64,000 bases of DNA from Diadema setosum (Eukaryota > Echinodermata > Echinoidea > Diadematoida > Diadematidae). The position numbers and the translations under genes are program-made. This document shows, in pieces, positions 16,652 to 62,465 of this stretch (its first letter is position 1; every line of letters begins with the position of its first letter). The notes beneath the pieces were generated by a model. The model did no database searches and was not told where the DNA came from. It saw nothing but the letters and a program-made list of their open reading frames with translations. The DNA lies in contig CM067077.1 in NCBI GenBank assembly GCA_033980235.1, positions 2,655,972 through 2,719,971 of the forward strand, in the 5' to 3' direction.

Positions 16652-16659
16652 TGTATCAC

Positions 16660-17760
16660 CCCTAAATGTAATATCAACGCTAAATGTAATATCGACCCTA
16701 AGTGTAATACACCTTAACCCTAAATGTAATAACAACCCTAAAAGTAATACATTTTAACGCTAAATGTAATAATCGAGTCAACCCTAAATGTAATACATTT
16801 TAACCCTAAATGTAATAACCGGAGACAACCCTAAATGTAATACATGTCAACCCTAAATGTTATATCGACCCTAAATGTAATACATGTCAACCCTAAATGT
16901 AATATCGACCCTAAATGTAATACTTTTTAACCCTATATGTAATATCGACCCTAAATGTAATACATGTCAACCCTAAATGATATATCGACCCTAAATGTAA
17001 TGCTTTTTAACCCTAAATGTAATATCGACCCTAAATGTAATACATCTTAACCCTAAATGTAATATCGACCCTAAATGTAATACACCTTAACCCTAAATGT
17101 AATAACAACCCTTAATGTAATACATTTTAACGCTAAATGTAATAATCGAGTCAACCCTAAATGTAATACATTTTAACCCTAAATGTAATAACCGGAGACA
17201 ACCCTAAATGTAATACATGTCAACCCTAAATGTAATATCGACCCTAAATGTAATACATGTCAACCCTAAATGTAATATCGACCATAAATGTAATACATGT
17301 CAACCCTAAATGTAATATCGACCCTAAATGTAATACATGTCAACCCTAAATGTAATATCGACCCTAAATGTAATACATGTCAACCCTAAATGTAATGTCG
17401 ACCCTAAATGTAATACATGTCAACCCTAAATGTAATATCGACCCTAAATGTAATACTTTTTAACACTAAATGTAATATCGACCCTAAATTTAATACATCT
17501 TAACCCTAAATGTAATATCGACCCTAAATGTAATACACCTTAACCCTAAATGTAATAACAACCCTAAATGTAATACATTTCAACCCTAGATGTAATATCG
17601 ACCCTAAATGTAATACATCTTAACGCTAAATGTAATAACAACCCTAAATGTAATACATTTTAACGCTAAATGTAATAACAATCCTAAATGTAATTCATGT
17701 CAACCCTATAAATGTGATACATCTTGACGCTTAATGTAATTACCACCCTAAATGTAAAAA
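16660..17760 (+). repeat. FB1 left outer array (CCCTAAATGTAATA units)
   Basis: Several dozen units alternate between an 18-bp form ending ATATCGA and a 22-bp form ending ACATGTCAA, with larger blocks (CGAGTCAA, CCGGAGACAA) that themselves recur every few hundred bases. This points to higher-order duplication of unit groups. Confidence 0.95.
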
Positions 17761-18834
17761 CCTCATTATAGAGAGTGTAACCAACGCAGAATATCGGGCA
17801 AAAGGTCAGGGGGTATATATGAAGGGGATATGACGCAACTTTTTACAGCACTCTTGAAAGAACAGCAATAGTTGCTTAGATTTGTTTTTGTTGTTTACCC
17901 AGGTAAAGACCACACAGTCTTATTAATTCCTTTGTTTGCTGCAAAGTTAATTAGGTACATTTGACATAGTTTTTCTTTTTAATCTATACCTTTATCATAC
18001 AATCACATAAACATTTTGTATTCCAAGTGTTCATGTTAGTTTAAAGTTTTGATGAAAAAGAAAAGAAAGGGCAAAAATTCTCTGCAAGGAAATTCTGAAT
18101 ATAAATAATATTGCAAGAAAAAGAAATATACCTACTCATGAAACGGGATGATAGAGCGAGTAGATTGAGAAAATTAGAAATTAGAAAGATTTAGAAAGAT
18201 TTCGCAAATTCTTTACGAACCATCATTATCTGATATGTAATGTTTCAATGACGAAATAGCTGTCACACATTGACATGGCAGCAAATCACTGTCTGAAATA
18301 TCAGCCTCATGACATTGTTCACCGGTACTCCTGGTAATCAGTACTATACTTAGTGACACGAAACTGGGACAGTTGGTCGTGGGGGGGGGGGGGGTACACG
18401 AAATAAATTAAAAAATGCCAGTAAAGCAAAAAGAAATAGATGTTTTTTTTATCATCTTTGAGTCACCATTTGTATATTGACTTTTCTATGATATGTAAAT
18501 GTATGAGTAAGGCAAACTGACTTAACTTTTGCCCATTTTTTTCTTTTTCAACAAAACTCTAAGCAATAATGAACACTGAATAAAGATTGGAATACAAAAT
18601 GTTTATGTGATAGTATGATATTTAAGAACTATGTCACATGGACCTAATTAACTTTGCAGCAAACAATAGATTTAATATGACTGTGTGATTTTTACCTGGG
18701 TAAACAACAAAAACAAGTCTAAGCAACTATTGCCGTTCTTTCAAGAGTGCGAGAGAAGATTGCGTCATAATTATCTCCTTCGTATACCCCCTGACATTTT
18801 GCCCGATATTCTGCGTTGCTTACCCTCTCTATAA

Positions 18835-19925
18835 TCAGGTGTATTGCATTTAAGGTCGTAATTACATTAAGCGTTGAATGTATTATATCTAATAGGGTTG
18901 ACATGAATTACATTAAGTATTTTTATTACATTTAGCGTTAAAATGTATTACATTTAGGGTTGTTATTACATTTAGCGTTAAGATGTATTGCATTTAGGGT
19001 CGATGTTACATTTAGCGTTGACATGTATTACATTTAGGGTCGATATTACATTTAGGGTTGTTATTACATTTAGGGTTAAGGTGTATTACATTTAGGGTCG
19101 ATATTACGTTCAGGGTTAAGATGTATTACATTTAGGGTCGATATTACATTTAGGGTTAAAAAGCATTACATTTAGGGTCGATATTACATTTAGGTTTGAC
19201 ATGTATTACATTTAGGGTCGATATTACATTTAGGGTTAAAAAGTATTACATTTAGGGTCGATATTACATTTAGGGTTGACATGTATTACATTAATATTTT
19301 AGGGTCGATATTACATTTAGGGTTGACATGTTTTACATTTAGGGTCGATATTACATTTAGGGTTGACATGTATTACATTTAGGGTTGTCTCCGGTTATTA
19401 CATTTAGGGTTAAAATGTATTACATTTAGGGTTGACTCGATTATTACATTTAGCGTTAAAATGTATTACATTTAGGGTTGTTATTACATTTAGGGTTAAG
19501 GTGTATTACATTTAGGGTCGATATTACATTTAGAGTTAAGATGTATTACATTTAGGGTCGATATTACATTTAGGGTTAAAAAGTATTACATTTAGGGTCG
19601 ATATTACATTTAGGGTTGACATGTATTACATTTAGGGTCGATATTACATTTAGGGTTAAAAATTATTACATTTAGGGTCGATATTACATTTAGGGTTGAC
19701 ATGTATTACATTTAGGGTCGATATTACATTTAGGGTTGACATGTATTACATTTAGGGTTGTCTCCGGTTATTACATTTAGGGTTAAAATGTATTACATTT
19801 AGGGTTGACTCGATTATTACATTTAGCGTTAAAATGTATTACATTTAGGGTTGTTATTACATTTAGGGTTAAGGTGTATTACCTTTAGGGTCGATATTAC
19901 ATTTAGCGTTGATATTACATGTAGG
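18835..19925 (-). repeat. FB1 right outer array, inverted
   Basis: Reverse complement of the left array (TTACATTTAGGG units), with the same CTCCGG and GACTCGA spacers in mirrored order but not base-for-base identical. The two arms have diverged or undergone separate repeat gain and loss. Confidence 0.95.
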
Positions 19926-19934
19926 GGTGATACA

Positions 19935-20570
19935 ACAGGTTGATATGGGACACAATCACTTAAAGTGAATGAGATGATGAAAGGATGGAAAGAAAACCCT
20001 CTTTTTTCGTTTTCCATCATTAAAAGGGATGGCTAGTAACTGATCAGTGGGAATCAGTGGGAATGCTGGAGGATGATTGTTCCAATCCTTGTGGGATTCA
20101 TTTAAGAGTACACTATATATCTATTCTTGTGTGAAAATTATTTGCTTCAGAATGGTCTCATATTCAAGTAATGTGCAGTAGCCTTCCCCTGTAAGATAAT
20201 TATTTGTAACCCCTTATTGTAATACTTGTTATTCATTTGTTTGCTTGAATTTTGTACCTGAATTGTACAGCGCATATAGAAGCATGTGTTTTTTTAAGCG
20301 GTTTATGAATGTAGCATTTATTATTGATGAAACTAAAGTTGATTCCTTATATAGCGCGTAATGCTGACGTTTATAAGCGCATTAATCCGGGGGGAAAAAT
20401 GAGGTAAGAAACAGCATCATGTGCATAACAATAGCAACAACAAAATCAACAAAATTAGGATTTAGTAAATAGATAAGTTTTCAACAATGATTTGAACTTG
20501 TCAACACTTAAATTACGAATATAGATTTGTTTGTTTGTTTTTTGGCAGAGAGATGGGGAAATAACCGATA
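19935..20570 (+). repeat. Inverted copy of cassette intron, right of FB1
   Basis: Continues the inverted cassette interrupted by FB1: GGTTGATATGGGACAC, then a GTTTTCCATCAT block, then GTAATACTTGTTATTCATTTG and TTTATGAATGTAGCATTTATT, all reverse complements of cassette landmarks. It is interrupted at 20020-20194 by a MITE. At about 20570 the orientation switches back: a scrambled direct piece, including a decayed exon head (GATTGGAGCTTTGC at about 20663), runs to 20740. Confidence 0.8.
20020..20194. mobile_element. Short MITE, AAAGGGGATGGCTAGTA family (copy 1)
   Basis: About 170 bp, left end TTAAAAGGGATGGCTAGTA and right end AGCCTTCCCCTGTAA, an imperfect inverted pair. The internal landmark GGGAATCAGTGGGAATG and the TGGTCTCATATTCA block recur at 47715 and 52322. 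It interrupts the inverted cassette intron. Confidence 0.7.
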
Positions 20571-20739
20571 TAAGGAATACACTAATGATATGACCCTTTC
20601 AGAAATATATGACCACATAAATTCACTTCTTCAATTCCCTCACTAACTAACTGTGTTCTGTTGATTGGAGCTTTGCATCAATATATACATTAATGATATG
20701 ACGAAGGAATACAATAATGATATGACCATTACAACCACC

Positions 20740-21000
20740 GTAATCGCCCCAACTATGCGATCTGCCAAGTTATATGAAAACGGTACAAGTATAAAGATTC
20801 ATGCGCAGTTTTGATGCACATTGATTTAACTTAATAAACCATCGATACGTCATAATACCGTTGAAATAAATGATTCGTAAATTTCCCGGCAAAGTTTCTA
20901 CATTTCCCGTCAAAACTGAATGTTTTTACAATTTCCGTCGATGCCATTTCCAAAATTTGTACATTTCCCGGGGAGGCGTTTGTTCATTTCCCTCCCGTTG
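20740..21000. mobile_element. Degenerate relic of an FB2-type arm
   Basis: ATTTCCCGGCAAAG, CATTTCCCGTCAAAACTGAA and CATTTCCCGGGGAGGCGTTTG follow one another. These match, with decay, the right outer array of FB2 (about 39035-39190), and a CATGCGCAGTTTTGAT sequence precedes them as it does in FB2 at 38948. A TTGTACA remains near 21000, but I find no duplication. Confidence 0.6.
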
Positions 21001-22855: not shown

Positions 22856-23213
22856 CAAACGATCCTCTAAGGTTGGAAAGCACGATTCTAAAACATGTTT
22901 TTTTCTTTCATTTAATAAGGCGTCCATAAGGTTCCACTGTTTCCACAGCACATGATTCTTCTAAAGTATACTTATGCATCAATCATCTTTGATCTTATAA
23001 CTGTGTATCATCATCTCCTGAGTGGAAGTTAACTCAATTCTTACAAATTATTTCTACGCTGTTAAAATTAGAGAAAAACAAACACATAATAATGTATCAT
23101 ACAAGCACTCTAATAGATTCATTCGAACCTTCTTACAGCAATCACAGCTGATGCCAAAATCGACAAAGAAAAGTAAAGAAAATAGTAATACTCTTTGAAC
23201 AAGAGATTCTAAC

Positions 23214-26830: not shown

Positions 26831-26887
<57 letters not shown>

Positions 26888-30889: not shown

Positions 30890-30925
<36 letters not shown>

Positions 30926-33779: not shown

Positions 33780-34426
33780 AAGTGAGTGCCATCGCGCCCA
33801 TCTGGCCCACTCTGCTCGGGCCGAATCTTCGAGCGACACCGAGCCCGCCGATCTAACACTGGCTGACATCCACCGCAGTATTCAACTTTCTTCCGCCAAC
33901 GTCTGTGCGCAGATTAATTCGTTGTCCAATGAAGTTGCCTCCATCAACAAAAGTTCTCCGACCTTGAGGATTCTGTCACTATGAATTACTCAGAAAATAT
34001 CACAGAGGTGGAACAGAGAAAAATCCCAGCGAAAAAAATGGCGGAGGAAATCAACAAGCTTCAGGATAAGCTGACATCCATGGATATTCATGGTAGACGT
34101 ACACATCTTGTCTTCTATGTTGTTGCAGAAACCCGGGATGAGCACGTCGATGACGTCCTTTGGGATACCTTCTCTTATCTTGGGACTAGGGACGCTGACA
34201 ACATTGCCATGGTTAACCCCCATCGCCTTCCACGCCGTGACAACGCTTCCAACCAGGCCAGCGGAGGGTCCGTCCCATGACCCAGCTCCACGCAATATCC
34301 TTGCCACGTCCGTATATATAACAAATCGAAACAAAATCCTGGCCGCATTCGAAGACCGTCAACGCCAACGACAACCACAAAGATCCCACGCCGCCGCCGA
34401 AGACCAGAACCCGCGTAGAATCACCG
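33780..34426 (+). pseudogene. LINE ORF1 relic, 5' part
   Basis: Plus-strand frames read TEPADLTLADIHRSIQLSS, then a coiled-coil-like NSLSNEVASINK, then EINKLQDKLTSM, HLVFYVVAETRDEHVDDVLW and, after a frameshift near 34275, VYITNRNKILAAFEDRQ. This order (coiled coil, then an RRM-like core) fits ORF1 proteins of L1- or CR1-type non-LTR retrotransposons, which bind RNA. Frameshifts and stops (for example near 33981) show it is dead. FB2 interrupts it at 34426, and the same protein continues at 39200. Confidence 0.6.
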
Positions 34427-34650
34427 TGTGGAGCCGGGAAATATGCAAACGCCGGGAAATGTGCAAACGCCGGGAATTGTGCAAACGTCTCGCCGGGAAA
34501 TGCGACATTGTGCAAACGCCGGGAAATGTGCAAACGTCTTGCCAGGAAATGTGCAAACGCCGGGAAATGTGCAAAGTTCATCAACGGGAAATGTGCAAAC
34601 GTGACGCCGGGAAATGTGCAAAAAAATCGCCGGGAAATGTGCAAATTATA
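34427..34650 (+). repeat. FB2 left outer array, 18-bp units
   Basis: About ten units of CCGGGAAATGTGCAAACG, mostly with exact spacing; a few are separated by short insertions such as TCTTGCCA or TTCATCAA. Confidence 0.95.
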
Positions 34651-36676
34651 TACTTAAGCGATATTGTGTATAAAGATAATAGATAAACTCCATATCAAAA
34701 CTGCCCATGAACTTCCACCATTTATATTTTCTTAATGAAATCCTTGACAGATTTTCAACAAAAGTGGCAGGTAGCACGATTATGGCAATGGGATCTCTAT
34801 TTGTTTATAGTAGCCACCCCCCCCCCCCTCCCGAAAAAAGGGGAGAGGGCCTCAAAGTCCCAGAACTACGGTTTTATCGAAATTCTTCTTATATTCTCTA
34901 ACCAAATAAGAATGAGCGAGGTTGGTTCTATATAGACATTGATGACAGAAGTTCAAGTTTAATGGCAGATCCAGGGATGCAGGGCACCGGCCATAAGTAG
35001 GGAGGAGGCTTCAAATTCAAGCCTCAGAGTCGCTAAACTAGTGCTATGAAGACATTAATGACTGAAATTGCATGTTTGATTACGACGGGGTGCCCGGATC
35101 GCGGGGGGGGGGGGGGTTGGGGGTGATCGGGAGAAGAGGGATTTTCTACATTTTCAGTATCTTCTTGAAAAGTATATGACAGATATTCACCAAACTTGTC
35201 AGATAGCCTCATTACGGTGATATGATCTTTATAAGTTGAAATTAGCCCCCAAGTAAACCCCCCGCCCCCGGTCGAAGGGGTGGGGGGGGGGGGGGTTGAA
35301 GCCTCAGAGTCCCTAAACTCTGGATTTTTAAATCTTCTTCTGTCGAACAAAAAAGATAAAGTGCCTTAAAGTTAGTGCCTTGAAGACATCAATGACTGAA
35401 ATCTCATGTTTGATTATAGCGGATCCAGGGTGCCCTGATTTTGAGGGGGGGGGGAGTGATGGAGAGGAGGGGGATTGTCCACATTTACTGCATCTTCTTG
35501 ATAAATCTCAAGAAGGATTTTCACCAAACTTTTGGCAGACAGCATCTTTACGGTGATGATCTTTATTACATTTTGTTACAATGAGCACCACCCCCTCCCA
35601 CCGCCGGGGGGGGGGGGGAGGAGTTGAAGCTGTCAGGTCCCTGAACTCTGGAATTTGTAATCTTCTGTCGAACCGAAGCATATAGAACTATGTTATATGA
35701 AGATACTAGTTACAAAAAAGAAAAAAAAATCAGGTTTGATTATGACTGGTCCAGGAGTGCCCTGATAAAGGGGGGGGGGGGGGGGGGGGGGGTGAGGGGA
35801 GGAGAGGGATTTTTCACATTTTCTGCATAGTCTTGTAAAATCTATGACGGATTTTTACCAAACTTGGCAGATAGTATATTTATGATGATTCGATCTTAAT
35901 TTGTTAAAATGACCCCCCCCCAACCGCTGAAGGGGGCTTGAACCTTCCGAGTCCCTAAACTCTTGATTGTTTGTTGTGTTTTTTTTTTTTTTTTACTTCT
36001 GTCGAACCCAAAAAGTTCGTGCGATAAAGACATTAATGACAGATATATCATGTTTGATTATGGTGGGTCCAGGGGTGCTCTGGTCGGGGGTAGGTGGGTG
36101 AGTGGGAAGAGGGGGATTTTCAAAATGTTCTCCATAATCTTGAAAACTCTATGACGAATTTTCACCAAACTTGGCAGATAGCATCCTTATGGTGATACGA
36201 TCTTAATTTCATAAAAAGAGCCCTCCCCCCTCCGCCGAAGATTGAGGTGGGGGATAAGGGGGGGGGGGGGGTTGAAGCCTCCCATTCGCTAAACTCTGGA
36301 TTTTTCTGATCTGTCGAACCGAAAAAAAAGAAGATAGAGCTAAGTTAGTGTTGTGAAGACTTTCATGCCTAATTATACCGGATCCAGGGGTGCCCTGATG
36401 GGGGCGGGGGGGGGGGGAAGGGGTGTTTCGGGATGGATGATGAAGAATGTATTTTCAGCATCTATGACAGATTTTCAGCAAACGTGGGAGGTAGCATCAC
36501 TAGTGTAATAGAATCTCACTAAGAGGCAACAAACCGCGGGGGGGGGGGGGGGACGGGCGTGATTGGGGTGAGACGAAGGCTCAAACCTAAGGAATTGAGA
36601 GTGAATATATAAATATCTCTCTCACCATACGTAAGAGAGATATAAAGATAGTACCGCGCTTTTTTAGTAAGTATAG

Positions 36677-37072
36677 TTAAAGGGATCGTATAGTTTTGGT
36701 TAAAACCTAATTTTAGATTTCTAACATTTTTTGGTGAGATATTGAGAAACCTCTTATGAAATATGAAAGAGCATGTATGTTCTATGGAGAATTCGACATT
36801 TATTTGATGAAAATTGGTTTTCAAATAGCTGAGATATCCAAAAAAAAAAAGAGCGATTCTGATAAAGTGTGGGACCAACACTTTATTACGATCGCTTTGT
36901 TTTACTTTGTTTATGGATGTTTCATTTATTCCAAACCCGATTTTCATCAAATAAACTTTGAATTCCTCTTAAAATAGTTTGCTCTGTACTATATCATAAG
37001 TGTTTTCTCGGTATCTCGCAAAAAGTTAAAAGCCCAATTCTCATCTCCATCAATACTGTACGATCCCTTTAA
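36677..37072. mobile_element. Palindromic MITE with TTAA ends (copy 2, nested in FB2)
   Basis: Same family as 15357-15744: TTAAAGGGATCGTATAGTTT at the left, GTACGATCCCTTTAA at the right, and the centre GTGTGGGACCAACAC. It sits in the loop of FB2, so it either hopped into the element or was carried along with it. Confidence 0.8.
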
Positions 37073-37684
37073 TGCATGGAGTAGGTTCACTAAGGGATGC
37101 CCAAAAAGGGGAGGGGGTATAAAGGAGGCTTAATTTTCACATTTTCGTCTTTTTCTTGAAAACTCAAGACGCATCCCTCGGGTAATAAATTCCTTTCCAG
37201 CTTAAAAAAAAAAGCCTATACAAAAGTGAGGGAGCTAATAGAGTGCTGTTATAGTAAATTCATGGATTAATTTCAAGGGCGGGGGAAGCGGATTTTTGAG
37301 GTAATTATTCAGCTTCTTCTCGAAACCCTTAGATATTTGCCAAGCTTGGCACGTAGCGTACCATATTTATCTGGTGATATGACCTCAGTTTGTTTAAATG
37401 AACACTGCCCCAACCCATAAGAAGGGAGGAGATGGAACTCCCCCTCCCAACCATCTCCGCCCCTTGAACAAGACGAGGGGAGTGGGGTCGCGTGGAATTC
37501 AGAATTTTCTGGAAAATCCTACATATATGAAAATAGGAATACATACTTGAAGAAATTTTCTTCGTAGCACTATACACTAAGCTCTATCTTTTTCCGTTTT
37601 GACAGAAGAAGATAAAAATTCCAGAGTTTAGGGACTGTGAGGCTTCAACCCCGCCCCCCCCCCCCCCTTCGGCCCCTCGGCGGT

Positions 37685-37693
37685 GTGTGTGTG

Positions 37694-37722
<29 letters not shown>
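37685..37722. repeat. (GT)n microsatellite in FB2 right arm
   Basis: GTGTGTGTGTGTGTCTGTGTG and further GT units follow a CGGCGGTG; a related TGTGTGTG run lies at 38049. They replace part of the G-rich block of the ~320-bp unit. Confidence 0.9.
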
Positions 37723-37724
<2 letters not shown>

Positions 37725-39019
37725 GTTTAGTATGGGAGGGGGCTCATTTGAACAAATTAAGAGCATATCACCATAAAGATGCAATTTGCCAAGTTTGGTG
37801 AAAATCGGTCGTAGATACTTCAAGAAGATGTTGAAAATGTGGAAAATACCTCTCCTTGCCCTTACCCCCCCCCCCCCTCGATCTGGAGACCCCTTGATCC
37901 GCCATAACCAAACATGAAATTTCATTCATTAACGCTGTGTCTTCATAGCACTAACTTAGCTCTATCTTTTTCGGATTGACAGAAGAAAATATTTTTAATA
38001 TCAGAATTTATGGACGCTGAAGCTTCAACCCCCCCCCCCCCTCGGCGGTGTGTGTGTGTGTGGGGGGGGGGGGGGCTCATTTGAACAAATCGTCTGTTGA
38101 GAATGAGAAGGGCGTTAAGTTATCTTGAACACTCTGGGTTTTGTGACAACTTAAGGCCCTTATCATTCTCAACCGACGAAATTAAGATCATAATTATTAC
38201 CATAAACATGCTATCTGTAAAGTTTGGTGAAAATCCCTCGTAGCTATTTCAGGGAGATGCTAAAAATGTGGAATATCCCCTCCACCCCGATCTGGGCACC
38301 CCTTGATCCACCTTAATGATACATGACATCTCATTCATAAATGTATTCATTGCACTAACTTAGCTCTATCTTTTTCGGTTTGACAAAAGAAGATTTTTTT
38401 TTTTTAATCAGGATTTTAGGGACGCTGAGGCTTTAACACCCCCCCCCCCCCCCATTTTCGGCGATGTGGGGCTCATTCTAACAAATCAAGATCATGTTAT
38501 TACCATAAATGTGACTGTATCTGCCAAGTTGGGTAAAAATCCTTCCTAGATTTTTCGAGAATATGCTAAAAAAGTGGAAAATCTCCTTCCTCTCACCCCC
38601 CCCCCCCCCCGATCAGGGCACCCCTGGGTCCGCCATAATCAAACATGAAATTTCAGTCATTTATGTCTTTATAGCACTAACTTAACTCTATCTCTTTCGG
38701 TTCGACATATGAAGAAAAAAACATTAAGCGTTTAGGGACTCTGAGGCTTCAACTCTTTCCTCCCACCTCCTTGGTGGTGGTGGTGGTGGCGGGGGGGGGG
38801 TCATTTTTAACAAATTACGATCATATGTTATATGCCAAATCAGGTGAAATTTTCTTGTGGGGTGTACAAGAAAATGCCGAAAATGTAACAAAAAAAAAAA
38901 GAGAAAAAGATTGTCGCTAAGACAGGTGGTAAAGATGATAATGGTTCATGCGCAGCTTTGATTGAGAGTTTCTCTTCCATCTACGAGTATATATAATATA
39001 GGTAAAATGAATGGTTTGC

Positions 39020-39194
39020 CCGGAAGGCTTCTGCACTTTCCCCGGCAAAACTGAACATTTGCACATTTCCCGGAGTCACGTTTGCACATTTCCCGTTGAT
39101 GAAATTTAGAGATTTGCACATTTCCCGGCGTTTGCACCTTTCCCGGCGAGACGTTTGCACATTTCCCGGCGTTTGCACATTTCCCGGCTCCACA
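39020..39194 (-). repeat. FB2 right outer array, inverted
   Basis: About eight degenerate units of the reverse complement (GTTTGCACATTTCCCGGC), ending CCCGGCTCCACA. Confidence 0.95.
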
Positions 39195-39199
39195 CACCG

Positions 39200-41105: not shown

Positions 41106-42424
41106 TATGGCAAGCCTTTTTTACATGTAAAGTTAATTTCTGATATCACAAATTCCACTTTGTGATATCAAAAAATCAAATTTTTGATATCAAGAATTCA
41201 ATTTGTGATATCAAGAATTAAATTTGTGATATCACAAATTCCCGTAAGTGTAGCACATGGACTTAATTTGTGATATCAAAAAATAGAATTTGTGATATCA
41301 CAAAATCCATTTTTGATATCACAAATTCAATTTGTGATATCAGAAATTCGAATTTGTGATATCTAAAATTCAATTTGAGATATCACTAAGTGAATTTGTG
41401 ATATCAGAAATTCCAATTAGTGATATCAAAAATAGGTTTCACGTGAAAAACCAATGGTAATTCGTGATATCACAAAATGATTTTTTTATATTACAAATTC
41501 GAATTTGTGATATCACGAAATAAATTTGTGATATCACTAATTTGAATATGTGATATCAAGAATGTTTATTTGTGATATCATAAATGCGAATTTCTGATAT
41601 CACAAATTCCATTTTGTGATATCACGAATTGAATTATTGGTATCACAAAATCGAATTTGTGATATCAGTAATTCACAGGGAATTCGAGCGTTAGTTTTGC
41701 GCTGAAATTCAACTGTGAATTCGACCGTTAGTTGAGCGCAGAAATACATAGGGATTTCGAGCGTTAGTTCAGTGCAGTAAATTCCTGTGAATTCGAGCGT
41801 TAGTTGAGCGCAGAAATGCTCGAATTCCCTGTGTATTTCTGCGCTCAACTAACGCTCGAATTCACAGTTGAATTTCAGCGCAAAACTAATGCTCGGGAAT
41901 TCACTTTGTATTTCTGCGCTCAACTAACGCTCGAATTCACAGTTGAATTTCAGCGCAAAACTAATGCTCGAATTCCCTGTGTATTTCTGCGCTCAACTAA
42001 AGCTCAAATTCCCGTTGGTTTTCTGCACTGAACTAAAGCTCGAATTCCCTGTGTATTTCTGCCCTCAACTAACGCTAGAATTTACGGTTGAATTTCAGCG
42101 CAAAACTAATGCTCGAAATCAAATGATTTCTTTGTAAATTAATGATATCACAAATTGGAATTAGTGATATCACAAAATGTATTTCTTGATATCAAGAATG
42201 TGAATTCGTGATATCTCGAATTGTATTCATGATATCACGAATTGAATTTGTGATATCACTAATTCGATTTCGTGATATCAAAAATTGGTTTTACATGATA
42301 AACCAATGGGTATTTGTGATATCAAAAATTGAATTTGTGATATCAGAAAGTCGAATTTTTGATATCACGAAAGGGAATTCGTGATATCAGAAAATCTTTT
42401 TAAAAAGTAATATGGCTTGCCATA
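41106..42424. mobile_element. FB4: nested palindromic element of GATATC units
   Basis: Ends TATGGCAAGCC and GGCTTGCCATA, with CGCGCG directly outside both (low complexity, so only weak evidence of duplication; TA is an alternative). The outer arms (41140-41670 and 42120-42400) are repeats of about 20-33 bp containing TTTGTGATATCA. The core (41675-42115) is itself an inverted array of ~36-bp units (TTTCTGCGCTCAACTAACGC), switching orientation near 41820. No gene. Confidence 0.8.
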
Positions 42425-45765: not shown

Positions 45766-45770
45766 CTATA

Positions 45771-53144: not shown

Positions 53145-54613
53145 AAAGTGTGTCTTGCATAACCACACCAAAAGATCATTGTACAACCCAAATTTAAAGT
53201 AAATCGCGTAAATACTGTGGAAGTAGTTAAATCCACAAGGTTTTTGGAAAAAAATGGTTACCATAATAAGGGCAACGCTTTTTCTGACAAACACACATAC
53301 ACACAAACACACACACACACACACACACAAAACATGTCTGCACATCTACACTTCAATGTCATCTTGTACCCCAAGTTTCATCAAAAGTGCTTCAAAACTG
53401 TAGAAGGATTTTCCGACGCAAGATTTGCAACTGACGCCTGTTAAACCCACAAATGTAAAAACGCCCACAAATGTAAAAACGCCCACAAATGTAAAAATAC
53501 ATTGCCCACAAATGTAGAAAATCGACCACAAATGTAAAAATTTAACATCGCCCACAAATGTAGAAAACGCCCACTTAGTCTAGCAGCCAGAAAGGGTCCC
53601 CGTGCACCCCCCCCCCCAAAAAAAAAAAAAAAATTCTACGATATGTTCGAAGATCGTCAGAACCTGTATTTTCCGAATCCGGTTGTCGCCAGCGGAAAAA
53701 AAGGTTGCGCGCGCGTCTTATTTGCATATTTCTAAGATGGCCGCCGCCCGTTGCTAGGAGACGGATTATTTTTGAATAACTTTATTTAGGAATAACAAAT
53801 TACCATAAAAATGGTATCATTTTGAAGAGAATTAAATTTCCTACAAGCTGATACCCCATTTGATGGGATAAATAGTTGTTGTTATGAAATATTAAGGAAG
53901 GAATTATGTTTTTTAGCATTTTTCTAAAAAGATACGGAATTTGGTTATAATGTTCTTTTCCATACATCTAATATGCATTTACAAATAAAATTTGAAATTT
54001 CCTAAAATTATCCCCTAAAGATAGCTATTATCATGTGAAAACGGCTTTCCAATTCACCAATTCCTTTAAAAGTTACACGACATTAAAGGGGATAAGGTTC
54101 AATAGGTTTTACAGCAATATTTAAGGGTTATAATGTCCCCGCGCGCAATTGCGTAGGTTCTGTATATGGGGTTTGTTATCTATTGCTACTGCTATCTATT
54201 GATCAAATCTCATCGAAATCGGCGAAGAAAGAAAGAAAAATTACACTTTCTATTCCTTATATGTAATAAAAATGTTTTTTTTTTTCTATTCTGTGTTACC
54301 AAACTCAATCCATTCAGCTTCCCATATGAACAGTTTCTTGTCTTTTTGGATTCCCTCCAAAATCACAACTTATCTGATATTAAAAAGTTAAAGAAAAAAA
54401 TTTGACGTGACAGTTTCCTCTTATTGGAAGATTAAAGTGAAAAAAAAAGAAGAATCTTATGCTAAAAGCCCTAAGAAATAAAGAACTTGTTAAATTGCCT
54501 TTGTTGGCAGAGCTTAAAATGAAACATGGCTATCTTATTTTTTCATAACAAAATGAAGGGAAGTATCTGTGTAGTTCATGTCGGCCCATACTGGGTTACT
54601 ATTCTTCAGAAAT

Positions 54614-55160
54614 GGTCCCCGTGCACCCCCCCCCCCCCTCAAAAAAAAAAAAAATCTACGATGTGTTCGAAGATCGTCAGAACCTGTATTTTGCGAATCT
54701 GCTTGTCGCCAGCGGAAAAAAGGGTTGCGCGTGCGTCTAATTTGCATACTTCTAAGATGGCCGCCGCCCGTTGCTAGGATACGGATTATTTTTGAATAAC
54801 TTTAGTTAAGAATATCAAATTACCATAAAAATTGTATCATATTAAAGAGAATTAGATTTCCTACAAGTTAATACCCCGTTTTATGTAATAAGTAGTTGTT
54901 GTTATAAAATACTAAGGAAGGACGGATTTTTTTTTTATACATTTTTCCCAAGAAATACAGATTTCAGTAATGTTTTTTTTCCATACATTTAATTTCTGTT
55001 TACAAATAACATCGGAATTTTCCTTAAGTTAAACCCCATAGATAAGTATTATTCTGTGAAAGCGGCTATTCAATACACCAATTTCTTAAAAAGTTACACG
55101 ACATTAAAGGGAAAAGGTTCAATACGGTTATACAGAAATTTAAGGGTAATGTCGACGGCC
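54614..55160 (+). repeat. Direct second copy of the FB3 arm segment
   Basis: GTCCCCGTGCACCCC, TACGATGTGTTCGAAGATCG and AAGATGGCCGCCGCCCGTTG repeat the order seen at 53597-54150, with moderate divergence. FB3 thus has two left arm copies but one clear right copy. Confidence 0.85.
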
Positions 55161-56159
55161 GCACTTGCGTAACGCGTGTAATACTATAATAATCATTGCA
55201 AGTATGAGACCCTATCACTTCTTACATCCAAATTATTGATTAAATATCATTAAATCTTGTGGAATATGAAAACAAATTAAATTTTTTATTCGCTATCACC
55301 TTTGATCTACTCAGCTTCACTTTTAGTTTACGTCTTTTTTCATCAAATAGAATGAAGGCCTTACGAGAGGTGTAATTTTATGACGGCCGAAACGGGCTTA
55401 CCTTGATAGGGGTTTCCAACATATCGATATTAATCAAACTTCTCTTCATCAACTCTCATTCTTCTGATCATCTTCACACACATACTCACACCTCCAGTAT
55501 CGCACACAGGCATTCATGCAGGGGAAATGAGCTCAGTCATGAATTTCGTGAATTTATTCAATACGCCATTAATGCATTCATGGAACATCAAACTCGAATG
55601 CTTTATTTAGATGTCGAAATAAGAGTTACATGTATACCGCACAAGCGAAATATTTCTCACCATGCTCTAGCATGAAATCAATTTATTTTTTTAAGATAAG
55701 ATCGCACATACGTGTTCTCATTCTTTGGTGGTTCGCCTGATGGTTTTTAAACATATTGCTCATACGTTTATTATTGCCAAGAAACTAATAGATAGATTAC
55801 AAATACCAAGGAATGGCATTGATAAAAACGAATAGTTGCAAGTCAAATCCAGTCGCTTTCAAATTCTGTGGGTTGTTTTTTTTATAAAAAATGATTTCAT
55901 GCACTTAACTTTATTACATGGGTTGATTTAAATGCAATACAACGTAAACTTGGTTGTTAAATCCGTTAGGAGTGACTAATAATCAATATTATACAAAAAT
56001 GAGAGAGAGAGAAAAAAAAATGTTATGGTTAAGTAGACCTTCATGCATGGATCTATAAAACATGAGGGAAATGTCTGAGGGAACATTAACTATGCATGCG
56101 TGTATGTATGTATGTGTGCATGTATATACTATAACTATGTATATATAATATATCTATAT

Positions 56160-56182
56160 CTATATATAAATATATATATACA

Positions 56183-56222
<40 letters not shown>
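56160..56222. repeat. (TA)n microsatellite
   Basis: Compound TATA/TATC run with two short interruptions, inside FB3. Confidence 0.95.
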
Positions 56223-56225
<3 letters not shown>

Positions 56226-57009
56226 GGTTTGTATACTTTTGTGTTGTGTGTGTTTGTGTTCAAGGATGTATGTGTATGACTAATGTGTTAAACATTAGAC
56301 ATATTCAGAGTGTAAATGTTTAACCACAACGAATACAATATTTTCATGTTTTCCACAGAAATTAGTTGCTAAAATGATTTGAAGTGTATCTGCTATAGGC
56401 GCATCTGACGTGCAATCCACTTTTAGAGCGCATGTAAGTTCCGCTGGAATAACATTTTAACTCATGCATGAATTAAATACACCATCCAATGTTTTCAGAT
56501 ATCCATGCCCTACTCGTCCGCCGGTCCTTTTTAGATAGAGTATATAACTATAGATGTGCATTATCGATACCCAAAAGATTATTGACATTGCACGTTAAAC
56601 ACTTTCACTAGGTTGCCATTGTCGCGAGTCTCGATATGCTAATACATGTATACTATCTACCACAAATCGATTCTTAGTCTACGAGTGACCGTGGTGATCA
56701 TGGCTTATCACATCTTGAGGTCTATGGTGGTAATCGTGTAGATCGTAGAAGAATTATTGGACTGTTCGAAAAATTACTACGATCAACACAATGTCTTTGA
56801 CTGACATCAAGATTTGATTATCTGATGATCAGCACGATTAGTCCCCGAGTAAGACCACGATTTCGGGCGAATCGAGAAAGTGGACCCAGCTTAGTGAATT
56901 CCACAAGAGTGGTAACGTACCATAAGGATAATCAACACAACAGTTTCAATACCGTACATATCAATATCTACATATCTTCAAAGATTACTTCACCAATGTA
57001 ATCTAGATT

Positions 57010-57990
57010 CTTTTGTATGCCTCCGCCAAGAAGTGGTGCCGGAGGCATTCTGTTTTCGGGTTGTCCGTCCTTCCGTCCGTCCTTCTCTCCGTCCGTAATG
57101 AATTTTGCGGACAGCGTAACAAAAAAAAAAAAAAAAAAAACAAAAACAAAAACAAAAAACTGAAATATTGCATGTATGTGTATTGGGGGTGAAATTCTGC
57201 CTATCAACTTTTGGGTGCACATGCTCAAGGTCAAAAGTCAAAAGGTCGAGGTCGCAAATGCTTAAAATTTCACTATTTCCCTCATATCTCTGCAATGACT
57301 AAAGATATTTTCTTGAATCTTAGTGTGTACAGGTATTACCAAATTAAAATTCACTGGTAAAAGTTTGGGGTGATAAGGTTAAGGTCAAATGTGAAAAGGT
57401 CATGTGAAAATGTTAAAATTTTACTTTTTTTCTCTGTATCTTGGATATTGTTCAAGGTATCTTCATGGAACATAGTATATGTTATGCATGTACTGACTGG
57501 AAGTGATTATCTAGGGAATTTGGGGTTCATGGGGTCAAAGGTCAAGGGCAACACTTCAAAATTTTACTATTTCCCTCATATTTATGCAATGCCAGCAGGA
57601 CTCTTTTTTTAAACTTGGTGTATGCATGTATAACCCAAAATAGAGATTCTCTGGCAATTTCTTTTTTTTTGCCAAAAAGGTCAAAGATCAAGAGAAAATG
57701 CTGAACTTGCTTCTTCCTCCATGTCTTGGAAGTGGCTCATGGCATCTTGAAACTTAGTACATATTTATGCATGTTCTGCCTGACAGTGATTCTCTTATGA
57801 ATTTTAGGGTCAAAGGCCAGATGAAAATGGTAACAATTTTCTACACAATACAAAAATTGCACTTTTTCTCCATACCTTGAAAATTACTTAATGCATAAAC
57901 TTATGAAAGGGCCAAAGTCAAGTTAAAGTCCTAAAATCCCCAAATACATGCTCTCCTATTCATCCAATTAGACCTAGGTCAAGGAAGGTG
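57010..57990. repeat. Dispersed repeat with GTCCGTCC start and 'AAGGTCAA' blocks
   Basis: Starts CTCCGCCAAGAAGTGGTGCC, then GTCCGTCCTTCCGTCCGTCC, then about four imperfect ~200-bp units with CAAGGTCAAAAGTCAAAAGG, ATTTCCCTCATAT and TTGGTGTATGCATG-like words. A reversed end of it (TTGACCTAGGTTTAATTGGA, ATGCCTCCGCC) appears at 59380-59560, so this is another inverted pair within FB3. I recall similar sequence as common in marine invertebrate genomes, but have not checked. Confidence 0.6.
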
Positions 57991-58005
57991 ACCATTTTGA
58001 ATTTT

Positions 58006-59088
58006 GAATGGAAACAATGTCATTATCGTTTTCAAATTCCCAGTAACAGGGTATTTAATCTTGTTGCTTTCGCGTGGCCTTTCTTTCTATAATATACAAG
58101 AAGTAAATTTGTTATTGCTTTCAGCAATAACAAATTTGGGCCCGTTTATCTATATCATGACGAACCTCCGGAATAACGAACCTTTGGGAAAAAAAAAAGA
58201 ACCTTCGGAATAATAAACTGTGACCAATATTGTTATATTGTACAAGCTTTAACGCCGACATCTATTAACCTACTATATTACTACTTTCACTCTTTGAAAG
58301 GAAACACGCCAACAACCAACGACACAACAGGAATGGAAACAATGTCATTATCGTTTTCAAATTCCCAGTAACAGGGCATTTAATCTTGTTACTTTCGCGT
58401 GGCCTTTCTTTCTATAAAATACAAGAAGTAAATTAGTTATTGCTTTCAGCAATAACTAATTTGGGCCCGTTTATCTATATCATGACGAACCTCCGGAATA
58501 ACGAACCTTTGGGGAAAAAAAATGAACCTTCGGAATAATAAACTGTGACCAATATTGTTATATTGTACAAGCTTTAACGCCGACATCTATTATCCTACTA
58601 CTACTTTCACTCTTTGAAAGGAAACACGCCAACAACCAACGACACAACAGGAATGGAAACAATGTCATTATCGTTTTCAAATTCCCAGTAACAGGGCATT
58701 TAATCTTGTTACTTTCGCGTGGCCTTTCTTTCTATAATATACAAGAAGTAAATTTGTTATTGCTTTCAGCAATAACTAATTTGGGCCCGTTTATCTATAT
58801 CATGACGAACCTCCGGAATAACGAACCTTTGGGGGGAAAAAATGAACCTTCGGAATAATAAACTGTGACCAATATTGTTATATTGTACAAGCTTTAACGC
58901 CGACATCTATTAACCTACTACTACTTTCACTCTTTGAAAGGAAACACGCCAACAACCAACGACACAACAGGAATGGAAACAATGTCATTATTGTTTTCAA
59001 ATTCCCAGTAACAGAGCATTAATCTTGTTACTTTCGCGTGGCCATTCTTTCTATAATATACAAGAAGTAAATATGTTATTGCTTTCAG
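58006..59088 (+). repeat. Tandem array, 3.3 copies of a ~320-bp unit
   Basis: GAATGGAAACAATGTCATTA recurs at 58006, 58331, 58651 and 58971 (steps 325, 320, 320). The copies are nearly identical. Each complete unit has a small hairpin (TTATTGC-TTTCA-GCAATAA) and the words CCTCCGGAATAACGAACC and GAAACACGCCAACAACC. Confidence 0.95.
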
Positions 59089-61096
59089 CCGGTAGCATAG
59101 CTTTCGATGTTTTGTGATATTATTAGAATTTAAACATTGAGCTCTCTATAGCTGACAATTGTAAAGTAGTAGCCCGCCAAAGTTGGATTACCTTTTTTTG
59201 ATACGCACTGTATAACCTGAAAAAAACACAGATATTTTTATCAATTGTACATTATAGCCACTCATATAATGATGTATTGTTTGAGTTAGTCTTCGTACAC
59301 CACATAATTACCAACTGCTAATAATAGTCGTAATCTTCGTTGTAATATTAAACTAGAAATGTCGCTATGACGACTGGTATGCCTCCGCCATAATTCTCCT
59401 AATAGGTGTATAGTACATGTGGACAATGTGCGATTACATTTTCACAAAATTGGCAAAATATTATAATGGCATGTTTGTCACAAATGTGCTGAATGGTCAC
59501 CTTCCTTGACCTAGGTTTAATTGGATGAATAGGAGAGCATGTATTTCACTTGATCTTTGACCTATCGTAGATTTTTTTTTTTTTGGGGGGGGGGTGCACG
59601 GGGACCATTTCTGAAGAATTTATGATGTAACCCAGTATGGGCCGACATAAACTACACAGATGCTTCCCTTCATTTTGTTATGAAAAAATAAGATAGCCAT
59701 GTTTCATTTTAAACTCTGAAAGGCCATTTAACAAGTTTTTTATTTCTTAGGGCTTTTAGCATAAGATTCTTCTTTTTTCACTTTAATCTTCCAATAAGAG
59801 GAAACTGTCACGTAAATGTTTTTTCTTTAACTTTATAATATCAGATAAGTTGTGATTAATTTCACGTTCTTGGAGGGAATCCAAAAAGACAAGAAACTGT
59901 TCATATGGGAAGCTGAATGGATTTAGTTTGGTAACACAGAATAGAAAAAAAAACATTTTTATTTCATATAAGGAATAGAAAGTGTAATTTTTCTTTCTTT
60001 CTTCGCCGATTTCGATGAGATTTGATCAATAGATAGCAGTGATCTACAACAAACCCCACATACAGAACCTACGCAATTGCGCGCGGAGACATTATAACCC
60101 TTAGATATTGCTGTAAAACCTATTGAACCATATCCCCTTTAATGTCGTGTAACTTTTGAAGGAATTGATGTACTGGAAAGCCGTTTTCACATGATAATAG
60201 CTATGTTTGGGGGATAATTATAGGAAAATTCAAATGTTATTTGTAAATGCATATTAAATGTATGGAAAAGAACATTATAACCAAATTCCGGATCTTTTTA
60301 GAAAAATGCTAAAAAACATAATTCCTTCCTTAATATTTTATGACAACATCTATTTATCCCATCAAATGGGGTATCAGCTTGTAGGAAATTTAATTCTCTT
60401 CAAAATGATACCATTTTTATGGTAATTTGTTATTCCTAACTAAAGTTATTCAAAAATAATCCGTCTCCTAGCAACGGGCGGCGGCCATCTTAGAAATATG
60501 CAAATAAGACGCGCGCGCAACCTTTTTTTCCGCTGGCGACAACCGGATTCGGAAAATACAGGTTCTGACGATCTTCGAACATATCGTAGAATTTTGTTTT
60601 AGGGGGGGGGGGGGTGCACGGGGACCCTTTCTGGCTGCTAGACTAACTAATGTGGAAATGATTTCAAACGTCGCCCACAAATGTAAAAACGATAAGTACT
60701 ATAGTACGTTGATATAAATAGACTCACTTCTTTAGGATAGCAGTGCACTTCTTGTAAAATAATGTGTACGTGTACGGAGACGAGTGCGTGTGTGTGGGTA
60801 ATAGTAGTTCGGCGGGGGAGATGTGTGTGCGTGTGTCTGTCTGTGTGTTACGGTGTGCTGCGTGTGTCACACCTTTCCGGCGGGCAGCTGCGCCTCCGGG
60901 CAAGTTACGCGGGCTTGTTGCGAGTACGAGCAGTACAATTTCTGCGGGTGGACAAAGATGTTAATCGGAGTTCCGTACTTGCGTTTTACCTGCTAGACGC
61001 GTGCCACTTACCTGCTATTTGCATGCCGACCTGCCATGGAGTATCGTTGCATGTACTACTGTGATAACATGCTTGTCTTCTGTCTGTTTGTTTGTG

Positions 61097-61141
61097 TGTT
61101 TGTGTGTGTGTGTGTGTGTGTGCGTGTGTGTGTGCGTGTGA

Positions 61142-61190
<49 letters not shown>

Positions 61191-61210
61191 GTGTGTGTGT
61201 GTGTGTATGT
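61097..61210. repeat. (TG)n microsatellite
   Basis: Long GT run with a few GC and GA interruptions. Confidence 0.95.
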
Positions 61211-61460
61211 GTTTTCCTGCAAGTTTCTGTTTCTGGGCGGCGGATGAGGACTGACTTATCTGCAAAGGAATCCCTCTGAAGTAATTTGAAATGGCAGAAA
61301 GTCATACAGAATGTCTATATTATACTCTCAACTAACCAGCAGAGAGGCAGTTACTGACCCTCAACATGCACGCAGATGAACAGCGACACTGGCAAATCAG
61401 ACTTGCGTGCGCATCTCCGGGTACTAGTGCGGGCCAACACCACTGCGGGGAGCTCCGGAG

Positions 61461-61512
61461 GAAAAAACAAAACAAAACGAAACAAAACAAAACAAAACAA
61501 AACAAAACAAAA
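61461..61512. repeat. (AAAAC)n microsatellite
   Basis: About ten units of AAAAC with one G substitution. Confidence 0.95.
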
Positions 61513-61697
61513 CTCCCCGGAAGTCAACCCGCAGGCTTTCCCACACACGATGTGACAAAGCCTTAGTTTTAGAGCTCCAGTCCCCGTATGTCGCTCGTAA
61601 CTGAAAACGGATCGGCTTCGACAGGTCACAGTACACGGAATACATGCAATTAAGTACTGTAGCTCGCGTCTAGTAGCGTGAGACGCACGAAATAACG

Positions 61698-62455
61698 GTC
61701 TACATAAACGCCCACTTACATACGTCAACCACAAATGTAAAAAAAAAAAAAAATTACATTTGTGGTTGATGTTTGGATTTTTTACTACATTAGTGGGCGT
61801 TTTTTACATTTGTGGGCGCTGTCGTTTTTACATTTGTGGTTGAAATTTTGTTACATTTGTGGGCGGTGTTTTTTACATTTGTGGGCGATTTTTACGTTAT
61901 TTTGTGGGTGATGTATTTTTTACATTTGTGGGCGTTTTTACATTTGTGGGTTCAACACGGTCTACATAAACGCCCACTTACATACGTCAACCACAAATGT
62001 AAAAAAAAAAAAAAATACATTTGTGGTTGATGTTTGAATTTTTTACTACATTAGTGGGCGTTTTTTACATTTGTGGGCGCTGTCGTTTTTACATTTGTGG
62101 TTGAATTTTTTTTACATTTGTGGGCGGTGTTTTTTACATTTGTGGGCGATTTTTACGTTATTTTGTGGGCGATGTATTTTTTACATTTGTGGGCGTTTTT
62201 ACATTTGTGGGTTCAACACGGTCTACATAAACGCCCACTTACATACGTCAACCACAAATGTAAAAAAAAAAAAAATACATTTGTGGTTGATGTTTGAATT
62301 TTTTATTACATTAGTGGGCGTTTTTTACATTTGTGGGCGCTGTCGTTTTTACATTTGTGGTTGATTTTTTTTTTTTACATTTGTGGGCGATTTTTACGTT
62401 ATTTTGTGGGCGATGTATGTTTTTACATTTGTGGGCGTTTTTACATTTGTGGGTT
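61698..62455. repeat. FB3 right outer domain: three ~260-bp supra-repeats
   Basis: GGTCTACATAAACGCCCACT recurs at 61698, 61959 and 62219. Each supra-repeat starts with a hairpin (CAACCACAAATGTA, an A-run, TACATTTGTGGTTG) and contains six to eight inverted 18-bp units (TTTTTACATTTGTGGGCG). This amplification has no counterpart at the FB3 left end. Confidence 0.9.
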
Positions 62456-62465
62456 CAACAACGCC

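What the first reader, a model, noticed from the sequence alone, without database searches (positions are those of the whole stretch)
16652..62460. Three unrelated-looking giant fold-back elements share one terminal code
FB1, FB2 and FB3 have arms of different sequence and size, yet all three begin TGT, end ACA, are bordered by 5-bp duplications, have CC at positions 8-9 and AAAT(G/A)T at exactly positions 13-18. They then repeat an 18-bp unit with the pattern AAATGT-NNN-A-N-C(G/A)-N-C: AAATGTAATATCGACCCT, AAATGTGCAAACGCCGGG and AAATGTAAAAACGCCCAC. This looks like one transposition machinery reading a 5' TGT plus an arrayed 18-bp binding site, while the rest of the cargo is free to change. TGT...ACA ends with 5-bp duplications are characteristic of retroviral-type integrases (Ty3-like, and the related Ginger DNA transposons, usually 4 bp) and of bacterial Tn7-type enzymes. 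Sea urchin TU elements have a comparable layout, but as I recall with 15-bp units and a different duplication length.
Basis: partly seen in the sequence, partly recalled or inferred. Interest (0 to 1): 0.88.

Follow-up and report, generated by a model that had tools for sequence, protein, structure and literature searches.

The report
Integrase-driven fold-back jumping genes
Three hairpin-shaped pieces of mobile DNA in what looks like a sea urchin genome share one ladder-like end code, and one intact relative carries the gene that probably moves them, an enzyme of the kind retroviruses use to insert themselves.

Summary
FB1 (16652-19934), FB2 (34427-39194) and FB3 (53439-62460) begin TGT, end ACA and carry exact 5-bp duplications. 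The terminal code has 357 matches in the 886-Mb host genome and 0 for the reversed pattern. Of 35 end-paired copies examined, 32 have a 5-bp duplication, against 2 of 1190 mispaired flanks. The code is longer than reported: AAATGT boxes recur near 13, 31, 49, 72, 90 and 113, less regularly in FB3 beyond 31.

The predicted coding relative exists. One 14.8-kb FB2 copy with intact ends and duplication GACCA encodes a 981-aa integrase-core plus OTU-protease protein. No inner terminal repeats frame that gene, whereas two LTR retrotransposons in other FB2 copies sit inside their own LTRs. The model matches foamy-virus and Ty3 integrases, but no HHCC zinc set is conserved.

Best reading: a lineage of Ginger-like integrase transposons, distinct from Ginger1 and Ginger2 as defined, with fold-back ends made of arrayed sites. 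The FB2 link rests on one copy; FB1 and FB3 are linked only through end homology.

The parts
16652..19934 (.). FB1, non-autonomous fold-back element of 3283 bp (TGTATCACC family); no match to the transposase family
   Evidence: Ends and flanks; inverted arms; tblastn with five members of the transposase family finds nothing in the window
16647..16651 (+). FB1 target-site duplication ACAGG, left
19935..19939 (+). FB1 target-site duplication ACAGG, right
16652..17288 (+). FB1 left arm with inward-reading AAATGT boxes (exact ones at element positions 13, 31, 71, 111, 135 ...), spacings mostly 22, 18 and 40
19298..19934 (-). FB1 right arm, 98% complementary to the left arm over 637 bp
34427..39194 (.). 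FB2, non-autonomous fold-back element of 4768 bp (TGTGGAGCC family, the family of the coding copy)
34422..34426 (+). FB2 target-site duplication CACCG, left
39195..39199 (+). FB2 target-site duplication CACCG, right
34427..34645 (+). FB2 left terminal array (unit GCCGGGAAATGTGCAAAC)
39058..39194 (-). FB2 right terminal array
53439..62460 (.). FB3, non-autonomous fold-back element of 9022 bp (TGTTRAACC family); the nine other FB3 copies measured are 1.3-1.9 kb
53434..53438 (+). FB3 target-site duplication ACGCC, left
62461..62465 (+). FB3 target-site duplication ACGCC, right
53439..53573 (+). FB3 left terminal array (boxes at element positions 13, 31, 49, 72, 92, 118)
61695..62460 (-). FB3 right end, about 261-bp unit repeated 2.7 times; the terminal sequence also ends at 61957 and 62218, but only the outermost copy abuts the duplication

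Best explanation
FB1-FB3 are non-autonomous members of one superfamily of DNA transposons. Their ends are a TGT tip, a 12-bp cap and a ladder of inward-facing AAATGT sites. The mobilising enzyme is a retroviral-integrase-type DDE transposase with an added OTU protease domain, encoded by an intact 14.8-kb FB2 relative.

Proposed action (inferred): several transposase molecules bind the spaced boxes at both ends and pair them. The CA-3' ends are joined to a GC-rich target with a 5-bp stagger, and gap repair gives the 5-bp duplication. Extra boxes raise affinity, so arms can lengthen and the interior is free to change.

Shown: the code, the ladder, the 5-bp duplications, the GC-rich target and the coding FB2 copy with no rival terminal repeats found. 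Inferred: that this protein moves FB2, that related enzymes move FB1 and FB3, that the boxes are its binding sites, and that movement is cut-and-paste.
For: Code matches 357 vs 0 reversed. 32 of 35 copies with exact 5-bp duplications vs 2 of 1190 mispaired. The symmetrised target (32 sites, families pooled) is GC-rich: the three central positions are 77-82% G or C. Boxes (one mismatch allowed) at 13 and 31 in all 70 ends; at 49, 71/72, 89/90 and 111/113 in 8-10 of 12 FB1 and 30-33 of 38 FB2 ends; in FB3 at 49 in 13, 72 in 12, 92 in 8 and 113 or 118 in 12 of 20. In the terminal 400 bp of 70 ends, 706 exact boxes read inward and 42 outward. FB2 copy C3:27886724-27901536: GACCA duplication, 105 bp of identical ends, 981-aa open frame with rve (1.7e-14) and OTU (1.4e-11). 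No inner inverted (longest exact 12) or direct (13) repeat frames the gene, shuffles giving 11-15, while LTR retrotransposons in two other FB2 copies have 618-bp and 198-bp LTRs at 99.5-99.7%. The model matches foamy-virus and Ty3 integrases. E275 is invariant and D240, OTU C500 and H621 nearly so. Four of 8 other integrase-OTU loci lie within 50 kb of an FB end against 2 of 32 Gypsy-type loci (Fisher 0.0095, post hoc). Same-family neighbours are in excess (FB1-FB1 within 50 kb 3 vs 0.16 expected; FB2-FB2 2 vs 0.21), as local hopping would give.
Against: One coding copy with FB ends only. Apart from L039, no FB copy fetched holds an integrase-OTU match; the integrase match in L034 lies outside the FB3 copy there and is Gypsy-like. 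Neither genome search listed a match inside an FB1 or FB3 end pair, but only 47 of 2475 candidates were scored. The C5 locus has an FB2-type end 3.1 kb away that points away from the gene, and an upstream stretch there matches the start of a Diadema setosum protein over 19 aa at 100%, so C5 may be a host gene; without C5 the contrast is 3 of 7 vs 2 of 32 (about 0.03, my arithmetic). At 100 and 200 kb the contrast shrinks to 4 of 8 vs 5 and 6 of 32. The C7 and C22 genes have no FB1 end adjoining them. Half of the FB2 ends beyond contig 7 could not be listed. Clustering is partly segmental duplication (L070/L071). The window itself puts three families within 46 kb, which local hopping within families does not explain. 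FB1 end homology is weak. No binding or transposition data.
Confidence: 0.7

Rival explanations
1. The integrase-OTU gene is cargo: an unrelated gene or decayed transposon that landed in one FB2 copy, and the true FB transposase is of another class and unseen.
For: Only one FB2 copy carries it. Other FB2 copies do carry foreign inserts, namely two LTR retrotransposons. Sister genes at C5, C7 and C22 lack adjoining FB ends in the right orientation in the end lists obtained (the Y half of the FB2 list is missing), and C5 may be a host gene. FB1 and FB3 coding copies were not found.
Against: No inner terminal repeats frame the gene in that copy, unlike the LTR inserts. It is an integrase-type enzyme, the class that makes TGT..ACA ends with short duplications (4-5 bp for Ginger; PMC2836005 and PMC10045372), so the match of enzyme class to end type would be a coincidence. 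Integrase-OTU loci lie nearer FB ends than Gypsy-type loci do (4 of 8 vs 2 of 32, post hoc).
Confidence: 0.2
2. The elements are non-autonomous LTR-retrotransposon derivatives or products of Gypsy integrase, since TGT..ACA and 5-bp duplications also fit LTR elements.
For: TGT..ACA ends and 5-bp duplications. Gypsy-type integrases are abundant in this genome.
Against: The ends are inverted, not direct, repeats. Ends bear arrayed boxes in mirror orientation. The 981-aa frame has integrase and OTU but no reverse transcriptase match. Its integrase core groups apart from the Gypsy-type rows (100/99; one row without an OTU label, P0035, falls inside).
Confidence: 0.04
3. Fold-backs of the Mutator, P/Galileo or Transib kind that converged on a similar layout.
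For: Most fold-backs are thought to belong to Mutator, with exceptions (PMC4079207 passages). Galileo, of the P superfamily, has arms with many transposase sites (PMC3688188 abstract). Transib also makes 5-bp GC-rich duplications (recalled).
Against: Duplications are 5 bp, not the 8-10 bp reported for Tetris. Ends are TGT, not the CAC of Transib (recalled). The only transposase-like gene found in a coded copy is an integrase.
Confidence: 0.05

Closest known systems
Ginger1 DNA transposons, OTU-bearing families (PMC2836005, sections 5 and 6 read)
   Same: Integrase-type DDE core followed by an OTU protease domain; TGT termini; inverted repeats; GC-rich target
   Different: 5-bp duplication with loose GC preference instead of 4-bp CCGG/CCGT; no conserved H2C2 zinc set; coding element 14.8 kb instead of 2.6-7 kb; arrayed boxes in fold-back arms that reach 637 bp in FB1 instead of 40-270 bp repeats
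Ginger2/TDD-4 and TDD-5 of Dictyostelium (PMC2836005)
   Same: Integrase-type transposase; 5-bp duplications for TDD-4/5; inverted repeats of 260 and 297 bp
   Different: Ginger2 has H2C2, no OTU domain is mentioned for it in the section read, and its members target AT-rich RTATAY; the metazoan ones make 4-bp duplications
Galileo (P superfamily) and Tetris of Drosophila (PMC3688188 abstract; PMC4079207 passages)
   Same: Long internally repetitive inverted arms; in Galileo these hold many transposase sites
   Different: Other transposase class; 8-10 bp duplications for Tetris
Bacterial Tn7 ends with TnsB (recalled)
   Same: TGT..ACA, 5-bp duplication, integrase-fold transposase and several spaced binding sites per end
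   Different: Eukaryotic; OTU domain; partner proteins like TnsA, C or D were not specifically looked for
Sea urchin TU elements (recalled; a 1983 sea urchin fold-back report is cited second-hand in PMC4079207)
   Same: Sea urchin fold-backs with tandem units in the outer arms
   Different: As recalled, 15-bp units and 8-bp duplications; not tested here

Membership tests
Ginger1 | Gypsy-integrase-like DDE core | tested here: met
   Pfam rve 1.7e-14; Foldseek PFV integrase 3.5e-20 (TM 0.56 by target length), Ty3 integrase 4.6e-17
Ginger1 | C-terminal OTU or Ulp1 protease domain | tested here: met
   OTU 1.4e-11; C500 and H621 nearly invariant
Ginger1 | H2C2 zinc finger upstream of the core | tested here: not met
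   No PF17921 in P0001. Of 37 aligned rows about 25 have letters there; two columns are H in 14 of 25 rows (126 and 150) and no column is rich in C. None of the 36 OTU-bearing hits carries PF17921
Ginger1 | 4-bp duplications CCGG or CCGT/ACGG | tested here: not met
   5-bp in 32 of 35, varied sequences
Ginger1 | Termini TGTNR | tested here: inconclusive
   FB2 TGTGG and FB3 TGTTA/TGTTG fit; FB1 TGTAT does not
Ginger1 | YPYY and GPY/F motifs | not tested
   No Ginger1 reference alignment was at hand; a strand-rich region follows the core at 389-446 in the model
Ginger1 | Same clade as Hydra Ginger1 in an integrase tree | not tested
   No reference Ginger1/2 protein available; the OTU family is separate from Gypsy-type rows
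Ginger2/TDD | H2C2 plus DDE | tested here: not met
   DDE yes, H2C2 no
Ginger2/TDD | AT-rich RTATAY target | tested here: not met
   GC-rich core
IS3EU/GingerRoot | 6-bp duplications, TA..TA termini (mostly) | tested here: not met
   definition from PMC10045372 passages
Mutator-type fold-back | 8-10 bp duplications | tested here: not met
   definition from PMC4079207 passages
LTR retrotransposon | Direct terminal repeats and reverse transcriptase | tested here: not met
   Inverted ends; no RT domain in P0001
Fold-back element (structural class) | Long internally repetitive inverted arms | tested here: met
Sea urchin TU elements | 15-bp outer units, 8-bp duplications (recalled) | not tested
   No TU sequence available

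The most novel reading that the evidence does not exclude
A distinct eukaryotic superfamily of integrase-OTU transposons, without the HHCC zinc site, has evolved a Tn7/Mu-like system: an ordered ladder of transposase sites (12-bp cap, then spacings of about 18-18-23-18-23) is the whole recognition code. Families that differ in sequence keep the ladder, and arms and cargo of any kind and size ride between two such ladders.
Probability: 0.45. Interest if true: 0.8.

Novelty: new variant of a known kind. Interest (0 to 1): 0.68.

Why it matters
Fold-back elements often lack an identified autonomous partner (Tetris is one example), and those assigned are thought to be Mutator mostly, or P (PMC4079207, passages). 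This gives one set of giant fold-backs a probable enzyme of the retroviral-integrase class and a concrete recognition code. It makes two questions testable: whether long repetitive arms are arrays of transposase sites, and how an integrase without its zinc-binding module finds transposon ends. It also widens the range of integrase-derived DNA transposons, which bear on where LTR-retroelement integrases came from.

Tried and rejected
Rejected: LTR origin, Mutator/P/Transib type, and cargo (see rivals). A fourth family with A or T at position 10 was sought: of 16 matches, 11 look like FB1 or FB2 variants by eye and 5 are singletons (one, C13:17963809, looks code-like); families with C or G at position 10 would not show there. 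Variant FB2 ends (10 matches) and variant FB1 ends (14 matches) were sought near the sister genes; only C5 had one, pointing away from the gene. Hypothesis that the C7 and C22 genes are autonomous FB1: FB1 pairs lie 34.8 and 43.6 kb away, but no adjoining ends were found, so it is left open. On re-checking I followed its second match (L034): the FB3 copy there is L034:255-1535 and the integrase match at 1578-2021 lies outside it, beside a gag-like frame, best matched by Gypsy-type proteins.

Four loci (L058, L059, L077, L078) had no end pair within three mismatches and were dropped before the 35-copy counts (39 loci in all with the window's three). The tree held 104 of 109 proteins; 5 were dropped for short core matches. 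Of the frames of the coding copy only the 981-aa one and one repetitive 193-aa one were scanned with Pfam; the latter gave nothing above cut-off.


Full report
The window lies in an 885.7-Mb assembly of 96 contigs (C19:2655972-2719971). The closest named proteins to the transposase found below are from the sea urchins Lytechinus pictus, L. variegatus, Diadema antillarum and D. setosum, so the host is probably a sea urchin. The species is not established.

OBSERVATION. All three elements are as described. FB1 is 3283 bp with 637-bp arms at 98% complementarity; FB2 is 4768 bp; FB3 is 9022 bp. The 5-bp duplications are exact. A pattern made of TGT, CC at 8-9 and two boxes has 357 matches in the genome and none for the reversed pattern; the printed part of that list shows only the three families and close variants, by eye. 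FB1 has 70 strict ends, FB3 99, and the FB2 ends preceded by A or G number 88; those preceded by C or T did not complete. I fetched 40 stretches chosen from the printed list; with the window elements these make 39 loci after re-joining split stretches. 35 have both ends within three mismatches. In 32 of 35 the flanks repeat exactly 5 bp, against 2 of 1190 mispaired flanks. The three failures are L047, L067 and L073. Two of the 32 (L049, L052) lie in C or G runs, and L070/L071 share one flank.

THE CODE IS A LADDER. In 70 ends, TGT occurs 70 times, CC at 8-9 70 times and AAATGT at 13-18 68 times. With one mismatch allowed, boxes follow at 31 in all 70 ends, and then near 49, 71-72, 89-92 and 111-118: 8-10 of 12 FB1 ends, 30-33 of 38 FB2 ends, but only 13, 12, 8 and 12 of 20 FB3 ends, some of which shift by a few bases. 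The order of spacings is thus about 18, 18, 22-23, 18-20, 22-26. In the terminal 400 bp, 706 exact boxes read inward and 42 outward. With boxes kept and the letters between them shuffled, FB2-FB3 identity is never reached in 300 trials; FB1-FB2 and FB1-FB3 are each reached 3 times. The ends are therefore diverged versions of one end, FB1 with less certainty. Target sites have a GC-rich core (77-82% G or C at the three central positions, symmetrised, all families pooled).

THE CODING RELATIVE. One FB2 copy, C3:27886724-27901536 (L039+L040, 14,813 bp, duplication GACCA), has 105 bp of identical ends and an interior of about 13 kb with no blastn match to the other loci fetched up to then. It contains one long non-repetitive frame of 981 aa with rve (1.7e-14) and OTU (1.4e-11) domains. 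The predicted model (pLDDT 72, pTM 0.46) matches full-length foamy-virus integrase (E 3.5e-20, TM 0.56 by target length) and Ty3 integrase (4.6e-17). Among 37 aligned relatives E275 is invariant, D240, C500 and H621 are nearly so, and QIDL with D178 is the consensus for the first acidic residue. No zinc-binding H,H,C,C set is conserved: of about 25 rows with letters in that region, two columns are H in 14 and none is rich in C. A likely F-box-like stretch near residue 855 is my reading only; Pfam did not report it.

IS THE GENE PART OF THE ELEMENT? Two other FB2 copies hold retrotransposon frames (gag and protease in L041; integrase H2C2, RNase H and SCAN in L043), but those lie between LTRs of 618 bp (99.7%) and 198 bp (99.5%), so they are nested. 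In the coding copy no inner repeat frames the gene: the longest exact inverted match is 12 and direct 13, where shuffles (inverted only) give 11-15. The FB2 ends are the only terminal repeats found around it. In all other loci fetched, tblastn with 37 family members finds a Gypsy-like core beside, not in, an FB3 copy (L034), a weak match in the L041 retrotransposon, and a short match upstream of the C5 gene.

OTHER INTEGRASE-OTU LOCI. A search with the OTU part finds clear matches at the C3 copy and at C5, C7, C22, C9, C6, C16 and C11; C17 appears only in the full-length search. C7 is open over 973 aa; C22 scores almost the same and has one stop. Excluding C3, 4 of 8 lie within 50 kb of an FB end, against 2 of 32 Gypsy-type loci (Fisher 0.0095); at 100 kb it is 4 of 8 vs 5 of 32, at 200 kb 4 of 8 vs 6 of 32. 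The cut-off was chosen after seeing the distances, and FB2 ends preceded by C or T beyond contig 7 are missing from the list. Against a simple story, the C5 end faces away from its gene, and 1.5 kb upstream of that gene a stretch encodes the same residues (19 aa at 100% in the tblastn match, more by eye) as the start of a Diadema setosum integrase-OTU protein, so C5 may be a conserved host gene. C7 and C22 have no adjoining FB1 ends. Same-family elements cluster (FB1-FB1 within 50 kb 3 vs 0.16 expected; FB2-FB2 2 vs 0.21; FB3-FB3 1 vs 0.26). Between families the counts are 1 vs 0.41 (FB1-FB3, the window itself), 0 vs 0.18 and 0 vs 0.26 (FB2 pairs, contigs 1-7 only); at 500 kb FB2-FB3 is 6 vs 2.56. 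That is what local hopping would give, though segmental duplication explains some of it, and the window's own three-family cluster is not explained.

MECHANISM. Most likely, a multimer of the integrase-type transposase binds the spaced boxes, pairs both ends, exposes CA-3' ends and joins them to GC-rich DNA with a 5-bp stagger. Shown here are the ends, duplications, target, ladder and the coding copy. Binding, pairing, excision and cross-mobilisation of FB1 and FB3 are inferred.

PLACE AMONG KNOWN SYSTEMS. Ginger1 is the nearest by domain make-up (integrase plus OTU), but it is described with H2C2, 4-bp CCGG/CCGT duplications and 2.6-7 kb elements (PMC2836005, sections 5 and 6 read). H2C2 and the duplication were tested and not met. 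Ginger2 has H2C2 and AT-rich targets, not met. IS3EU/GingerRoot lack the zinc site but make 6-bp duplications with mostly TA..TA ends (PMC10045372 abstract and passages). Fold-backs in print are mostly thought to be Mutator, with exceptions (PMC4079207 passages), and Galileo of the P superfamily has arms with multiple transposase sites (PMC3688188 abstract). In the listings of searches I saw no report of fold-backs tied to an integrase-type transposase (open-licence library only; Repbase not available). I therefore call it a new variant of a known kind: it works like Ginger/integrase elements with Galileo- or Tn7-style arrayed ends, and is not filed as Ginger1 or Ginger2.

Noticed in passing
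window 41135-42393: Another symmetric repeat structure: arrays of a 22-bp palindromic unit (AATTTGTGATATCACAAATTCG) on both sides of 36-bp arrays in opposite orientation; looks like a further fold-back type, ends not examined.
   Followed up: no
window 23752-25443 (-): 564-aa frame with a NACHT domain (5.7e-21), an NLR-type gene of the kind expanded in sea urchins (expansion recalled).
   Followed up: no
window 58006-59089 and 61695-62460: 320-bp unit repeated 3.4 times at 96% inside FB3, and the FB3 right end present three times: end duplication inside an element.
   Followed up: partly
L079:1819-1902 (C5:7986618-7986701): 1.5 kb upstream of the C5 integrase-OTU gene a stretch encodes LLMLLLSLNPQCAFGLGRKPPFDLFKW, identical by eye to the start of Diadema setosum protein P0007: possible conserved exon of a domesticated gene, or a recently moved copy.
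   Followed up: partly
L039:5228-8170 and proteins P0002, P0003, P0006: Sea urchin integrase-OTU predictions share a hydrophobic signal-peptide-like leader before a conserved MNDD/MTDE start; could be a real leader or translated splice-acceptor sequence.
   Followed up: no
P0003 (Diadema antillarum): The catalytic D of the HDQGSEF motif reads E in this relative, so it may be inactive or repurposed.
   Followed up: no
C7:21638636-21646288 and C22:2693677-2697359: FB1 pairs 35 and 44 kb from the two sister integrase-OTU genes at C7 and C22, which score almost alike.
   Followed up: partly
FB3 copies: In most listed pairs one end reads TGTTAAACC and the other TGTTGAACC, so the two ends are distinguishable.
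   Followed up: no
L043:5374-8577: Gypsy-like element nested in an FB2 copy, with a SCAN domain in its frame and 198-bp LTRs at 99.5%.
   Followed up: partly
L034:255-1535 and 1578-3034: An FB3 copy beside gag-like and Gypsy-like integrase frames, perhaps an insertion into a retrotransposon; the retrotransposon was not traced on the other side.
   Followed up: partly
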